Assembly: GCA_019116885.1 (NCBI GenBank)
Contig: DXAU01000022.1
Location: forward strand, 1 to 48,532
Length of the DNA stretch: 48,532 bases
DNA from: Candidatus Mediterraneibacter pullistercoris
GTDB lineage: Bacteria; Bacillota; Clostridia; Lachnospirales; Lachnospiraceae
Direction of reading: 5' to 3'
Below the pieces are notes generated by a model. The model did no database searches. It had not been told where the DNA came from and saw only the letters and a list, made by a program, of their open reading frames with translations. A program made the position numbers and the translations under genes. Of the stretch, positions 23,344 through 44,784 are shown piece after piece (position 1 is the stretch's first letter; every line of letters starts with the position of its first letter).

Positions 23344-25281
23344 ATGATGAAGAAAAGATTGCGCAGGATACTGGCGGTTTTGCTGACAGTATCTATAGCG
23401 GGAGCAAATGTGCAGCCTGTATTTGCGACGGGAGAGGAAACCGCATTGACGGAGGAAGTAAATGAAGCCAGCGGGGCGGAGCAGCTTTCTGCTGCGGCAG
23501 AGACTGACACGGAAGAAGCGTCAGATCCGGAACCCGAAGACAGGGCCAACAGCTGGCGTTATGTCGACGGAGAACCTATCACAGGCACTGCCAAAGCGCG
23601 CGCGTCCCGTGCTTTTGAACAATATACGACATGGCCCACAGACGTACCTGGAGCAGTTGGATTCGGAATTGACGTGAGCGAGCATCAGGGAGAGATTGAT
23701 TGGGCGAAAGCAAAGGCCGCAGGCGTTGAATTTGCAATCGTACGATGCGGCTATGGACAGAATGAGGCTGGTCAGGACGATAAATACTGGACGGTCAATG
23801 CAGACGCATGTGAAAAAAACGGAATCCCCTTCGGAACCTATCTGTATTCTTATGCGGACACCGTGGCAAAAGCCAGGAGCGAAGCCCAGCATGTTCTGCG
23901 CCTGATAGACGGATATGATCTCGACTATCCGATCTACTATGACCTGGAAGAAAACTCAATAAGAAACAAACTGAGCGAGACACAGATCGCCGATATTGCA
24001 GAGGCGTTCTGTGATACGATCGAGGCTGCAGGATATGAAGCGGCTATTTATTCAAATACGGACTGGTTTACAAACTATCTGACGGACAGCCGGTTCGACC
24101 AGTGGGATAAATGGGTTGCCCAGTACAATACGACCTGTACTTATACAGGAGACTACAGTATGTGGCAGTGCTCCTCAAAAGGACGCATCGACGGAATATC
24201 AGGCAATGTGGATCTGAACGTGGATCTGGGAGCTGCCCTGGACGCTCACTTTATACCCGGAGCGAACGGATTTCATGCGAGTCCTGCCAACGGAAACTGG
24301 TATTACTATAAAGACGGCGCGATACAGTACGGACTTGAGGACGTAATCAAGGGAACCGTTGACGGCACATATGCCTGGTGGCATGTTTCTAACGGCAAAG
24401 TAGTATATGACACTACCGTGGCCAAGAACAGCAAAGGCTGGTGGTATATAGAGAATGGAAAAGTAAACTTTGACGCGAATACAGTGGCCAGGAACTCCAA
24501 AGGCTGGTGGGTAATCCGCGCCGGAAAAGTCGACTTCGATTACAATGGATTTGCAGAGAATGAAAACGGCTGGTGGTACTGTGAAGACGGAAAAGTGCAG
24601 TTTGGGACAAACGATGTGATCAAAGGTACTGTAAATGGTACAAATGCCTGGTGGTATGTAGTTGGCGGCGAAGTTACTTTTACCGAAACAGTAGCCAAGA
24701 ACAGTAAAGGCTGGTGGCGCATTGTCGATGGAAAAGTTGATTTTAACTGCAATAGTGTGGAGAAGAACCATCTGGGCTGGTGGTATATCCGGGGTGGAAA
24801 AGTAGATTTCAGCTACACGGGCGTAGCCAAGAACAGCAAAGGCTGGTGGCGCATCGTCAATGGAAAAGTTGATTTTAATTATAACGGATTTGCAGAGAAC
24901 AGCAAAGGCTGGTGGTACTGCAGAGGCGGAAAAGTACAGTTTGACACAAACAGCGTCATCAAAGGCACTGTTGATGGAACAAGAGCCTGGTGGCATGTGG
25001 TCGGCGGAGAAGTTACATTTGACAATACAGTGGCCAAAAATTCCAATGGCTGGTGGCATATCCAGAAAGGAAAGGTAGATTTTAATTCCAATACAGTAGC
25101 TAAAAATTCCAATGGCTGGTGGGTGATCCGAAACGGAAAAGTAAATTTCCGGTTTAACGGAATCGCGAGCAATTCAAATGGAAGCTGGCTCTGCCAGAAA
25201 GGCAAAGTAAACTTCAATTATAACGGGACATATACGTATGGCGGAAGGTCTTATACGATAAGAGGCGGAAAAGTAGTATGA
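23344..25281 (+). CDS. Secreted GH25 muramidase with GWW wall-binding repeats
   Basis: The 645-residue product begins with a signal peptide (basic MMKKRLRRI, hydrophobic core, cleavage near VFATG at 26-30) and an acidic linker. The GH25 lysozyme domain (about residues 104-300), which cuts the MurNAc-GlcNAc bond of peptidoglycan, has [11 protein letters not shown] with Asp110 and YYDLEEN with Asp200 and Glu202, the usual catalytic acids. About 14 repeats of roughly 22 residues follow to the end (pattern [18 protein letters not shown]), with a 25-residue variant starting VIKGTV recurring every four or five units. Two other proteins in the window carry the same repeats. It stands as its own unit between a stem-loop and a strong terminator. 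Roles could be wall turnover, polymer-site trimming or competition with other bacteria. Confidence 0.95.
24259..25281 (+). repeat. GWW repeat array of the GH25 protein
   Basis: About 14 coding repeats of 66-75 bases, each giving a unit like [20 protein letters not shown]. Tryptophan pairs and a terminal GKVDF/GEVTF beta-hairpin recall choline-binding and other cell-wall-binding hairpin repeats. The units starting near 24352, 24625 and 24955 are the longer VIKGT type. Confidence 0.85.
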
Positions 25282-25287
25282 GACATG

Positions 25288-25337
25288 AAAACTGCTGCAT
25301 CTATGGGGGGATTCATAGATGCAGCAGTTTTATGCTT
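25288..25337 (+). terminator. Strong terminator after the GH25 gene
   Basis: AAAACTGCTGCATCTATG (25288-25305) and its exact complement (25314-25331) form a perfect 18-base stem with an 8-base loop; the descending arm ends in TTTT and TTTTT lies a few bases further on. The A/T symmetry would let it work in either direction. Confidence 0.8.
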
Positions 25338-41899: not shown

Positions 41900-41904
41900 A
41901 CTTT

Positions 41905-44784
41905 ATGGATCGAAAACATACTTTCAGAAAAGGCAAAGATCACATAGCCATATGCAGGGGACTTCGGGGAAGACTTGCTGCAGCCATATGTGCGGCGGCA
42001 GTCTGTATTGCTATGCCATATCCGATACAGGTTCAGGCAGTGGAAGCCGGGGACGCAGAGAATCAGGAACAGTTAGAACAGTCAGACCAGATGGAAAATG
42101 ACACAGCGCAGGAAGAACTGACCGGAGAAGAAAAAGATCAGGGTACGGCAGATCAGAATACGTCAGATCAGGATTCCGGAGAGAAGAAAGAAGCTGCGAA
42201 AACGGCTGCAGACGGGCCGGATACAGTGCAGCAGAACGCAGAAAAAGAGACGGCAGGAAAAAGGAAGGCAGACGCTCCGCAGCAGATGGATGTTACAGAA
42301 GAAGATCTTACGCTTCAGTATGATGACAGATATTCTCTGTCTGAATATATCAAAGACGGGTGGACGATCAAATCTCTTGAGACAACAAGAGTTGACTCTA
42401 ATTCAGTTTCCGGCGGAAAAAATACCGGAAAGAAAGACGGGGAAGTCATAAGACAGGACGGGCAGACAATCATTGCTTCCGGCGTGGGAACCGCAAAGAT
42501 TCTCCTTGTGCCCGCAGGACAGAGCGATGGGAGCGGAGCGGCAGAGACTCTGCAGATTAACGTTACAGTGGAGCCTGCAGAGCTGACGCTCATATATATA
42601 ACCGGGCAGAGCAATGCGGAAGGCTGGTGTTCGTCAAATACAGGGTATCTTCGCAGTGAGTCTGTCGCATGTGAAGACGGTTCTGTGTATTCGACGTACG
42701 CACCAGTCAATGCTTCCAGCTCTAAATCGTCTGTGATTGCAGGAATCAGCTTTTCAGAATACTGTACAGAGTCAAACGCTTCCCGGTTTGTTGCAGGATC
42801 TCTGACGGGCAGCAGCAGTATATCAGGAAACCAGATGCAATATTCTCTGGATACGCTGACAGAGTCCGGAGACGGGAAAACAGGACCGGACAGTGCGCTG
42901 GCCTATGAATGGAACCGTCTGACCGGGGATAAAGTGTGGGTAGTGAATACATCCTGGGGGGCCACCTCAGTAGTCAATTGGACTCCGGGAGGCGCTCAGT
43001 ATGAGCGCTCTATGGCTGTGAACCGTCTCGTACGACAGACGTATCAGGCAGAGATAGACGCGGGACATTATACGGAAGGAGAGAGCCTTCTGTGCTGGCT
43101 GCAGGGAGAAGCTGACAGATATATGACCGCAGAAGCATATTACAGTTCTTTTTCATCCATGTATAATGCCATGGTAAAAGATCTCGGATTGGATCTGTTC
43201 GGAATCATCATGGTGCGGTCCAATGAAGGGTCCCGCTCTAATGCAGAGGATATCAGTATGTCCGGTCCGCGTGTTGCACAGTATGCGGCAGGCGGAGCAG
43301 AGGGACTGGCAAAGGCTTATGTAGTAAGCAATGTGAATGAACAGTGGGTGACAAATGCGCAGGTCAAGAGTTATTTCTCCAAAGCCTACCCAGGAGGTTC
43401 TCTGACCTATCCGATGCAGAATGCATCGGTAGGACTGCCGGCCACTGTCGCAGAAGTACATAATGATATCCATTATTCACAGATTGGACATAATGAGAAC
43501 GGCATCACCGCGGCTGCGGGGATGTATGCTGTGCTGTCCGGAGGGACGGGGAGTGCAGCTCCCGGGATTGTCTGGAAAAACCGGGACGGCGTGCATGTGA
43601 CAAATCTTACGATGGATAAGGGAGAAGAAGTTACCGTAGTTCCGGCAGCGGATCCGTCCTATCGTGCGAAACAGGTGGACTATAGAGTTGAGGGTGCAGT
43701 AGGATTTGACGTAAAGACCGGGACAGTTACGGCGAAACAAAAAGGAACAGGTAAGATAACTGCTGTTGACTCCAGCGGAAAAGTACTGTCGGCATTGACG
43801 GTCACTGTGGAGGATGCTCTGGATCTTACAGAAGCAGCAGGGAAAAACTACACTGGATTGTTTCAGCACAAGGGTACGTGGTGGTATCTGAAAAACGGGT
43901 ATATACAGAGCGGATATGTCGGCGTAGTCCGCAATGAAAACGGCTGGTGGTATGTGGAAGACGGAAAAGTTGACTTTACCTACAATGGCTTTGCCCAGAA
44001 CAGCAATGGCTGGTGGTATATTGAAAATGGAAAAGTAACCTTTAAAAAGACCGACGTTATCAAAGGCGAAGTGAACGGCGAGGTAGCCTGGTGGCGAGTA
44101 GTAGACAGCGAGGTGGACTTCAACTGCAACAGTGTAGAAAAAAATAAGAACGGCTGGTGGTATATCCGTGGCGGAAAGGTGGACTTTAACTATACGGGAG
44201 TCGCGAAGAACAGCAAAGGCTGGTGGCGCATCGTAGACGGTAAAGTGGACTTTAAATGCAACAGTGTGGAGAAGAATCACCTGGGCTGGTGGTATATCCG
44301 AAACGGTAAGGTGGATTTCAGCTATACAGGAGTCGCGAAGAACAGCAAAGGCTGGTGGCGCATCGTAGACGGTAAAGTGGACTTTAAGTGCAACAGTGTG
44401 GAGAAGAATCACCTGGGCTGGTGGTATATCCGTGGCGGAAAGGTGAACTTTAACTATACGGGGGTTGCGAAGAACAGCAAAGGCTGGTGGCGCATCGTAG
44501 ACGGTAAAGTAGATTTTAAATGCAACAGTGTGGAGAAGAACCATCTAGGCTGGTGGTATATCCGTGGCGGAAAGGTGGATTTTAACTATACGGGAGTTGC
44601 AAAGAACAGCAAAGGCTGGTGGCGCATTGCAAACGGCAAGGTTAATTTCGGATTTAACGGGATTGCAAGGAACCATAACGGATGGTGGTATATCCGAAAC
44701 GGCAAGGTTAAATTCTCTTACAGCGGAACGGTCACATGGGAGGGACGGAGATACAGAGTGGTAAGAGGGGAAGTGCGAGTGTAA
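41905..44784 (+). CDS. Secreted SGNH/SASA-type esterase with GWW wall-binding repeats
   Basis: The 959-residue product starts with a long signal peptide (about residues 1-47, hydrophobic [16 protein letters not shown]), then an acidic Gln/Glu/Asp-rich linker to about residue 120. A small beta domain follows, and an SGNH-type hydrolase domain (about 225-545) with GQSNAEG (Ser236), WLQGEAD, and [11 protein letters not shown], which holds Asp521 and His523. It resembles sialate O-acetylesterase-type enzymes, so it probably removes O-acetyl groups from a glycan. A Big_2-like segment (about 565-640) precedes some 14 GWW repeats to the end. It sits 5 bases after an exporter ATPase and downstream of acyltransferase genes, so the wall polymer may be its substrate; that is inference. 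Confidence 0.9.
43846..44784 (+). repeat. GWW repeat array of the esterase, with 132-base tandem copies
   Basis: About 14 coding units. Four copies of a 132-base pair of units start at 44125, 44257, 44389 and 44521, exactly in register, and the last three are almost identical at the base level. This suggests recent unequal crossing-over or conversion. One [13 protein letters not shown] unit begins near 44056. Confidence 0.88.

What the first reader, a model, noticed from the sequence alone, without database searches (positions are those of the whole stretch)
23344..44784. Three secreted enzymes with different chemistry share one repeat anchor inside a teichoic-acid-like locus
A GH25 muramidase (23344), a YkuD L,D-transpeptidase (38001) and an SGNH/SASA-type esterase (41905) each carry about 13-14 units of the same repeat (pattern [18 protein letters not shown]), and all lie among TagD, glycerophosphotransferase, acyltransferase and exporter genes. 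In pneumococci, choline-binding hairpin repeats anchor enzymes to teichoic acid. By analogy the repeats here may bind the polymer, or an acyl or sugar group on it, made by this locus. That would be a self-contained polymer-plus-reader system, with cutter, cross-linker and de-acylator on one anchor.
Basis: partly seen in the sequence, partly recalled or inferred. Interest (0 to 1): 0.85.

Follow-up and report, generated by a model that had tools for sequence, protein, structure and literature searches.

The report
Wall-anchor repeats in a teichoic-acid locus
A gut bacterium appears to tie three different cell-wall enzymes to its surface with one shared repeat, encoded inside the gene cluster for a wall polymer; the repeat is a known general anchor, but some close relatives carry another anchor type alongside different polymer genes, so anchor and wall may be matched.

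Summary
GH25, YkuD and SASA proteins carry about 13, 11 and 13 units of one repeat, inside a locus with TagD, a TarI-type cytidylyltransferase, four TagF-type transferases, two TagGH-like exporters and two membrane acyltransferases. The arrangement recurs in another genus and in two congeners (one cut by a contig end). The repeat is not new: it is Pfam PF21540 (Choline_bind_4), modelled as a beta-hairpin solenoid like pneumococcal choline-binding modules and clostridial toxin CROPs. It is not a private reader of this polymer. The genome has nine repeat proteins, six elsewhere, one a prophage endolysin; four of nine repeat-bearing congeners have no TagF match over the cut-off. Choline is an unlikely ligand: no LicD was found and one Trp of the (recalled) choline cage is replaced. 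Most interesting, but indirect: in relatives with a different polymer cassette, GH25 and YkuD proteins carry another repeat subtype (23-residue SWYY instead of 22-residue GWW), and subtype is nearly uniform within each genome sampled. One such relative, G439, is close to the window genome by its flank but not by cassette or anchor. I favour a general wall-glycopolymer anchor whose subtype tends to follow wall chemistry. The ligand is unproven.

The parts
14198..15742 (+). LCP (LytR-CpsA-Psr) protein, likely polymer-to-peptidoglycan ligase; left border of the cassette in relatives
   Evidence: PF03816 123.7 bits; 81-85% identical in G439 and G447
15987..19086 (+). UDP-GlcNAc 2-epimerase, TagA/WecG-type transferase, UDP-sugar dehydrogenase: linkage-unit and sugar supply
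   Evidence: PF02350, PF03808, PF03721
21596..23165 (+). first TagGH-like exporter (membrane protein and ATPase)
   Evidence: PF00005 over cut-off, PF01061 below its cut-off (19.6 against 26.9); the ATPase matches TagH-type models best, below their cut-offs
23344..25281 (+). secreted GH25 muramidase with 13 type-1 repeat units
   Evidence: PF01183 and PF21540; 13 units
25419..31120 (+). three TagF-type glycerophosphotransferases (25419-26597, 26587-28257, 28238-31120)
   Evidence: PF04464; 71-76% identical in G026
31139..32927 (+). TarI-type cytidylyltransferase and an SDR enzyme: probable CDP-alditol supply
   Evidence: NF001183 191.7 bits against cut-off 166; PF01370; 90% and 84% identical in G026
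32984..35083 (+). membrane acyltransferase Acyl1 (699 aa)
   Evidence: PF01757 167.5 bits
35101..36501 (+). fourth TagF-type transferase
   Evidence: PF04464 232.6 bits
36429..36917 (+). TagD glycerol-3-phosphate cytidylyltransferase
   Evidence: TIGR01518 188.9 bits against cut-off 165.4
36959..37999 (+). membrane acyltransferase Acyl2, NolL-like, immediately before YkuD
   Evidence: PF01757; NF042426 far below its cut-off; 67-71% identical in G026 and G436
38001..40067 (+). secreted YkuD L,D-transpeptidase with a Big_2 domain and 11 type-1 repeat units
   Evidence: PF03734, PF02368, PF21540
40243..41899 (+). second TagGH-like exporter
   Evidence: PF01061, PF00005; TagH model 274.5 bits against cut-off 320
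41905..44784 (+). secreted SASA-type (SGNH) esterase with 13 type-1 repeat units
   Evidence: PF03629, PF21540; repeat segment 43840-44781 modelled at mean pLDDT 95.3

Best explanation
The repeats are a general, non-covalent cell-wall anchor of the choline-binding/CROP hairpin-solenoid kind. They hold a set of secreted proteins (muramidase, L,D-transpeptidase, esterase, a transglutaminase-domain protein, a CAP protein and others) and a prophage endolysin to the wall. The most likely ligand is a repeated substituent or backbone motif of the wall glycopolymer, not choline. Three of the users sit inside the polymer cassette because they remodel the wall where that polymer is inserted. When the cassette is exchanged between strains, an anchor set of another subtype can come with it or replace the old one. 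Shown: repeat identity, modelled fold class, gene linkage, near-uniform subtype within each sampled genome, one case in which cassette and subtype disagree with the flank. Inferred: binding to the glycopolymer, the ligand's chemistry, the enzymes' activities, the exchange itself.
For: PF21540 in all three. Hairpin solenoid at pLDDT 95.3; Foldseek matches to CROPs (E 5e-11) and to pneumococcal Pce, LytC and LytA repeats (E 1.5e-8 to 7e-4). Nine users in the genome with unlike other domains, two of them with none recognised. The same repeat on a prophage endolysin next to holin, tail and tape-measure genes and, on viral contigs, with M23 or Amidase_3 in 5 of 7 proteins scanned (of 9 viral loci): endolysin binding parts normally target the wall. 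Cassette with readers in G026, G436 and partly G447. Subtype: GWW 22-aa units in G000, G026, G436, G447 and others; SWYY 23-aa units in G439, G465, G455, on GH25, YkuD and transglutaminase-domain proteins alike. Mean best-unit identity for the same enzyme in different genomes is 0.82 within a subtype (34 ordered comparisons) and 0.38 across subtypes (38). G439 is close to the window genome by flank (six flanking genes 64-99%, LCP 0.81 against 0.69 to G465), yet has another cassette, and its other repeat proteins have the subtype of G465.
Confidence: 0.6

Rival explanations
1. The repeats bind phosphocholine on the teichoic acid, as the Pfam name and the pneumococcal analogy suggest.
For: Same fold class as choline-binding modules; type-2 proteins of relatives also score with Choline_bind_1 over its cut-off; 9 of 16 other repeat-bearing genomes have LicD.
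Against: LicD gives no candidate in the window genome, 92.4% complete, and no match in G026, G050, G135, G436 and G447 (as G201 and G200). The Trp of the GW motif (recalled as one wall of the choline cage) is mostly V, F, T, L or I at unit position 3 in type 1 and L in 93% of type-2 units, and position 12 varies. LicD is not enriched with the repeats in the family sample (3 of 7 against 122 of 193).
Confidence: 0.12
2. The repeats bind peptidoglycan or another universal wall part; lying in the polymer cassette is only shared regulation or hitch-hiking.
For: Repeats occur with TagF only, LicD only, both or neither; 45 of 47 loci have no TagF within the flank held; the GH25, YkuD, NlpC/P60, amidase and M23 users act on peptidoglycan by family.
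Against: A universal ligand would not call for a near-uniform subtype per genome or for the subtype to differ with the cassette in G439; 49 of 58 genomes of the genus have no match to the repeats though all should have peptidoglycan.
Confidence: 0.2
3. The strict first reading: a private reader of the acyl-bearing polymer made by this very locus, with cutter, cross-linker and de-acylator.
For: Acyl1/Acyl2-group acyltransferases in 5 of 5 covered cassettes with PF21540 enzymes and 0 of 4 without PF21540; Acyl2 immediately before YkuD; the closest cassette without repeats (G053) also lacks Acyl2, YkuD and SASA.
Against: Repeats in many genomes without the locus; six of nine users lie elsewhere in this genome. 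G015 has TagF genes and a type-1 repeat protein on one contig but no Acyl1/Acyl2-group gene there. G421 has another Acyl_transf_3 but no repeats; counting any Acyl_transf_3 the contrast drops to P = 0.05-0.17 (on 54 of 97 ORFs).
Confidence: 0.1
4. The repeats bind host or food glycans outside the cell, as CROPs and glucan-binding repeats do.
For: CROPs and glucansucrase repeats are among the best structural matches.
Against: Many users are wall enzymes by family, and phage endolysins share the repeat; linkage to a wall-polymer cassette.
Confidence: 0.06

Closest known systems
Pneumococcal choline-binding proteins (LytA, LytB, LytC, CbpL)
   Same: Hairpin-solenoid anchor on unlike wall enzymes and on phage lysins; anchored to a teichoic acid (CbpL paper PMC5137146: start of abstract seen in listings 16 and 69; the rest recalled)
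   Different: No LicD found here, cage Trp replaced, no choline evidence; repeats fall in PF21540 rather than PF01473/PF19127
PF21540 (Choline_bind_4) proteins of gut phages
   Same: Same repeat family; a gut-phageome protein with GH25, 13 Choline_bind_4 units and YkuD is reported (PMC13284279, passages seen)
   Different: Here the enzymes are separate bacterial genes in a polymer cassette
SLH domains with pyruvylated secondary wall polymer (CsaB)
   Same: Shared anchor for surface proteins; a modifying enzyme makes the epitope and tracks the anchor (PMC6030368, abstract seen)
   Different: Different domain family and chemistry; no epitope known here
CWB2 proteins of Clostridioides difficile
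   Same: Repeat anchor with a wall glycopolymer as ligand (review PMC5817068 lists wall polysaccharides for CWB2, passages seen; PSII as the ligand is recalled)
   Different: Different domain family; here enzyme genes lie inside the polymer cassette
Bacillus subtilis lyt/tag region
   Same: Autolysin genes beside wall teichoic acid genes (recalled)
   Different: Different anchor repeats; no esterase and L,D-transpeptidase trio (recalled)

Membership tests
PF21540 Choline_bind_4 repeat family | score over the curated cut-off (27 bits) | tested here: met
   154.9, 150.9 and 200.8 bits
Choline-binding proteins in the functional sense | beta-hairpin solenoid fold | tested here: met
Choline-binding proteins in the functional sense | three-aromatic choline cage including the Trp of GW (motif recalled) | tested here: inconclusive
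   W is not among the six commonest residues at unit position 3 in 318 type-1 units; the Trp pair at positions 10-11 is kept, partly by construction of the extracting pattern. Pocket geometry was not measured
Choline-binding proteins in the functional sense | LicD-type phosphocholine transferase in the genome | tested here: not met
   0 candidates in G000; genome 92.4% complete, other transferases not excluded
Choline-binding proteins in the functional sense | binding to or elution by choline | not testable with these tools
   needs protein and walls
Wall teichoic acid biosynthesis locus | CDP-glycerol synthase and glycerophosphotransferases | tested here: met
   TIGR01518 over cut-off; four PF04464 proteins
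Wall teichoic acid biosynthesis locus | TagGH exporter | tested here: inconclusive
   TagH-type models are the best matches but below cut-off; TagH NF010066 216.1 and 274.5 against 320
Wall teichoic acid biosynthesis locus | LCP ligase and TagA-type transferase | tested here: met
   PF03816 and PF03808
Wall teichoic acid biosynthesis locus | TagO | not tested
   not sought in the rest of the genome
Self-contained polymer-plus-reader system | repeats only in genomes with this polymer locus | tested here: not met
   4 of 9 repeat-bearing congeners have no TagF over the cut-off; none found in G135
Self-contained polymer-plus-reader system | repeat proteins encoded only in the locus | tested here: not met
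   3 of 9 in the window genome. In G026 the matches printed (17 of 36 by my count) lie in the locus, but only 41 of 68 candidates were scored
Epitope-and-reader systems (SLH with CsaB type), as analogy | a modifying enzyme tracks the anchor | tested here: inconclusive
   Acyl1/Acyl2 groups in 5 of 5 against 0 of 4 cassettes; any Acyl_transf_3 5 of 5 against 1 or 2 of 4; G015 against

The most novel reading that the evidence does not exclude
Wall polymer and surface proteome are matched by an exchangeable anchor code. In this genus the site beside the LCP gene works like a serotype locus: it carries alternative polymer cassettes, each with its own wall hydrolase and, where PF21540 readers are present, a decorating acyltransferase. 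The anchor subtype of the surface proteome (22-residue GWW or 23-residue SWYY units) follows the decoration, so exchanging the cassette forces exchange of the anchor on muramidase, L,D-transpeptidase and transglutaminase proteins, and phage lysins must follow.
Probability: 0.17. Interest if true: 0.75.

Novelty: new variant of a known kind. Interest (0 to 1): 0.5.

Why it matters
How gut Lachnospiraceae attach proteins without covalent anchors is poorly known (my judgement), and PF21540 bears a choline name that may mislead. This locus supplies candidate polymer genes, candidate decorating enzymes, two anchor subtypes on enzymes of the same families, and relatives with and without repeats, so the ligand question becomes a short set of binding tests. 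If subtype follows wall chemistry, lysin and surface-protein specificity in gut commensals could be predicted from the cassette.

Tried and rejected
Choline as ligand: LicD searched in the own genome, 200 family genomes and 16 repeat-bearing genomes; neither required nor enriched.

Strict dependence on TagF: rejected. Enrichment in the family sample is not significant.

YkuD remnant in the G439 locus as a relic of the type-1 system: tested and dropped. It is 0.86 identical to the window YkuD and 0.90 to type-2 YkuDs over 69 residues. Likewise the G026 YkuD domain is as close to the type-2 YkuDs (0.78-0.79) as to the window's (0.79).

Homogenisation of repeats within a genome as the cause of the uniform subtype: not favoured. 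Units resemble those of the same enzyme in other genomes of the subtype (0.82) more than those of other enzymes in the same genome (0.70) (19 proteins of 7 genomes, comparisons not independent, units of the two subtypes cut out with different patterns).

Solved structures by sequence: no match at E 0.1 for P0003; profile A4 gave only weak matches that I take for chance. Phage records: no tblastn match for the repeat segment (BLAST filters low-complexity sequence). A2 gave no usable pattern in genome contigs; A3 was used instead. Literature: searches; among the papers listed I saw no title or abstract start that ties PF21540 repeats to a teichoic-acid locus in Lachnospiraceae; this is not proof that none exists.

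Rows dropped: three genomes (G048, G116, G191) with one match each below the cut-off are not counted as repeat-bearing. In one search proteins with fewer than 4 units by the patterns were not listed; this hides the G439 SASA (3 units) and all G050 proteins; L032 there repeats the window SASA; the G451 row is a PF19127 protein and is not counted as PF21540. G454 was not fetched. In one search, 2 of 47 loci (L113, L115) showed no repeat ORF by the regex but stay in the denominator; many loci are cut by contig ends, and the 47 come from 16 records' genomes. The G026 chance figure printed is not used, because not all candidates were scored. Viral loci L065 (same contig as L066) and L068 were not scanned. 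The acyltransferase comparison leaves out G447, G425 and G437 (contigs end inside the cassette), eight partly covered TagF loci of other genera (none had the groups), G136 (not included) and G015 (repeat protein over 20 kb from its TagF genes, told above as a counter-case). One search scanned 54 of the 97 ORFs listed and shows 25 of 68 families, so its Acyl_transf_3 count is 1 or 2 of 54.

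Full report
What is there. The window is a whole contig (C6, 48,532 bases) of a 2.45-Mb draft genome, 92.4% complete. Relatives found by sequence are mostly Lachnospiraceae, the best matches Mediterraneibacter MAGs. Three proteins share one repeat: GH25 (23344-25281), YkuD (38001-40067) and SASA (41905-44784). The repeat is PF21540, Choline_bind_4, at 151-201 bits against a cut-off of 27. 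A unit HMM finds 13, 11 and 13 units. N-terminal signal sequences were judged by eye.

The locus. LCP, UDP-GlcNAc 2-epimerase, TagA-type transferase, UDP-sugar dehydrogenase, glycosyltransferase, a first TagGH-like exporter, GH25, three TagF-type transferases, a TarI-type cytidylyltransferase with an SDR, acyltransferase Acyl1, a fourth TagF, TagD, acyltransferase Acyl2, YkuD, a second TagGH-like exporter, SASA. TagD and TarI pass curated cut-offs; the exporter ATPases match TagH-type models best but below cut-off, and the first membrane protein is below the Pfam cut-off. TarI here pairs with an SDR; the G439 cassette pairs it with a dehydrogenase that I read as TarJ-like by context. The polymer should therefore hold glycerol phosphate and a second alditol phosphate; that is inference.

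The locus recurs. G026, another genus with a one-contig genome, has the same order with 58-90% identical TagF, TagD, TarI, SDR and Acyl2 genes, repeat-bearing GH25, YkuD and SASA, and a fourth repeat protein of NlpC/P60 type at the place of Acyl1. G436 and G447, in the same genus, have it too; the G447 contig ends inside the cassette. (By contig coordinates G436 is G201, G447 is G200, G462 is G204 and G438 is G203.)

The repeat is a general anchor. This genome has nine repeat proteins: three here; two on C37, one with a transglutaminase domain; one each on C39, C1 (CAP domain) and C50 (Big_2); and an Amidase_2 endolysin beside holin, tail and tape-measure genes at the end of C65, its remaining units presumably at the start of C56. 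Three of nine on this contig has P about 6e-4, post hoc. Of seven repeat proteins scanned from viral contigs, five carry M23 or Amidase_3 and two show repeats only.

Is it choline? LicD has no candidate in this genome. In 318 type-1 units, Trp fills positions 10-11 (partly by construction of the pattern), but position 3, where choline-binding repeats have the Trp of GW (recalled; also visible in the PF19127 protein of G451), mostly holds V, F, T, L or I. Choline is unlikely but not excluded.

Is it a private reader? Among 58 congeners, 9 have the repeats (E 1e-5) and 14 have TagF over the cut-off; the table is 5, 4, 9, 40 (Fisher P = 0.03, relatedness not corrected). In the 5 genomes with both, at least one repeat enzyme lies in the TagF cassette. 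But 4 of 9 repeat genomes have no TagF over the cut-off (G438, G454, G455, G462; the last has two weak matches and, as G204, LicD). In 200 family genomes, 7 have repeats over the cut-off (10 at E 0.001); 6 of the 7 have TagF against 117 of 193 others (P = 0.25), and 3 of 7 have LicD against 122 of 193. In 16 repeat-bearing named genomes TagF is found in 10 (9 over cut-off) and LicD in 9, with both, either or neither. Of 47 repeat loci, 2 have TagF within the flank held, at most 10 kb. A cassette related to this one in G053 (TagF3 58%, TarI 57%, SDR 59%) has no YkuD, SASA or Acyl2 in the stretch fetched, and that genome has no PF21540 match; its GH25 ends in what looks by eye like DUF4214 repeats.

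Anchor subtype. G439 and G465 carry another cassette: TarI with a TarJ-like dehydrogenase, one TagF, several GT2. Their GH25 and YkuD proteins bear a related but distinct repeat of 23 residues with SWYY, against 22 residues with GWW in the window. Among fetched proteins with at least 4 units, those of G439, G465 and G455 are type 2 (40, 43 and 25 type-2 units against 3, 2 and 1 type-1), and those of G000, G026, G436, G447, G438, G462, G135, G136, G015 and G006 are type 1. For the same enzyme in different genomes, mean best-unit identity is 0.82 within and 0.38 across subtypes. The YkuD catalytic domains stay about 70% identical between the window genome and the type-2 genomes, but the GH25 domains only 39-41%.

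The case of G439. It is close to the window genome by six flanking genes (99, 90, 73, 91, 64 and 76%) and LCP (0.81, against 0.69 to G465); G421 and G451 are further by each flanking gene compared in full (57-80%, LCP 60%). Yet its cassette is that of G465, G421, G425, G437 and G451 (cassette genes 67-91%), and its anchor subtype is that of G465. It keeps a SASA gene that ends after about three type-1 units, near an ORF that looks like a transposase. This fits an exchange of cassette and anchor, the old esterase decaying. Against over-reading: the type-2 YkuD is 100% identical in G439 and G465 and 91% in G455, where no TagF was found, so part of the set has moved on its own; and four genomes with the same cassette have no PF21540 repeats.

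The hydrolase slot. Between LCP and TarI the G439-type cassettes hold a wall hydrolase with varying anchors: GH25 with type-2 repeats (G439, G465), Amidase_3/Glucosaminidase with PF19127 repeats (G451), Amidase_3/fn3/Glucosaminidase without (G421). In G439 and G465 the GH25 is followed by an acyltransferase of the Acyl1 group, not found in G421 and G451. Acyl1/Acyl2-group genes are in 5 of 5 covered cassettes with PF21540 enzymes and 0 of 4 without (P = 0.008, not independent); with any Acyl_transf_3 it is 5 of 5 against 1 or 2 of 4, from 54 of 97 ORFs scanned. G015, with TagF genes and a repeat protein on one contig, has none of these groups there. This is a lead for an O-acyl ligand, no more.

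Mechanism. Exported enzymes dock through 11-13 hairpins on a repetitive wall polymer; the muramidase opens glycan strands, the L,D-transpeptidase cross-links, the esterase may strip O-acyl groups. Only the domains, the modelled fold and the linkage are shown; docking and activities are inferred.

Known or new. The repeat family, its occurrence in gut phage lysins (including a reported GH25, 13 Choline_bind_4, YkuD protein; PMC13284279, passages seen) and related CWB1 repeats in Lachnospiraceae (PMC5817068, passages seen) are known. I file it as a new variant of a known kind.

Noticed in passing
window 10657-11532: A CdaA-type diadenylate cyclase (PF02457) lies in the flank upstream of the polymer cassette; homologues of this flank are found beside the different cassettes of G439, G421 and G451.
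   Followed up: partly
L028 (C65:18000-26730) and L031 (C56 start): Prophage tail, Dit, holin and an Amidase_2 endolysin with type-1 repeats, cut by a contig end.
   Followed up: yes
window 21596-23165 and 40243-41899: Two separate TagGH-like exporters in one locus, perhaps two polymers or two export steps.
   Followed up: no
L150, L168, L149: Type-2 YkuD protein 100% identical (533 aa) in two species whose LCP proteins are 69% identical: recent transfer.
   Followed up: partly
L166:8920-12627 and L158:3-4505: The hydrolase slot of the same cassette type holds an Amidase_3/Glucosaminidase with PF19127 repeats in G451 and with fn3 domains in G421.
   Followed up: yes
L145:861-2879: SASA esterase of G439 ends after about three type-1 units near an ORF that looks like a transposase, in a genome whose other fetched repeat proteins are type 2.
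   Followed up: partly
L048-L053, L058 (G135): Large set of repeat proteins, including one with a Metallophos/purple-acid-phosphatase-like part and one with an arylsulfotransferase domain, in a 99%-complete genome with neither TagF nor LicD found; its wall polymer is unknown.
   Followed up: no
L147:3-3623 (G465): A large RHS/YD-repeat-like protein (judged by eye) next to the cassette.
   Followed up: no
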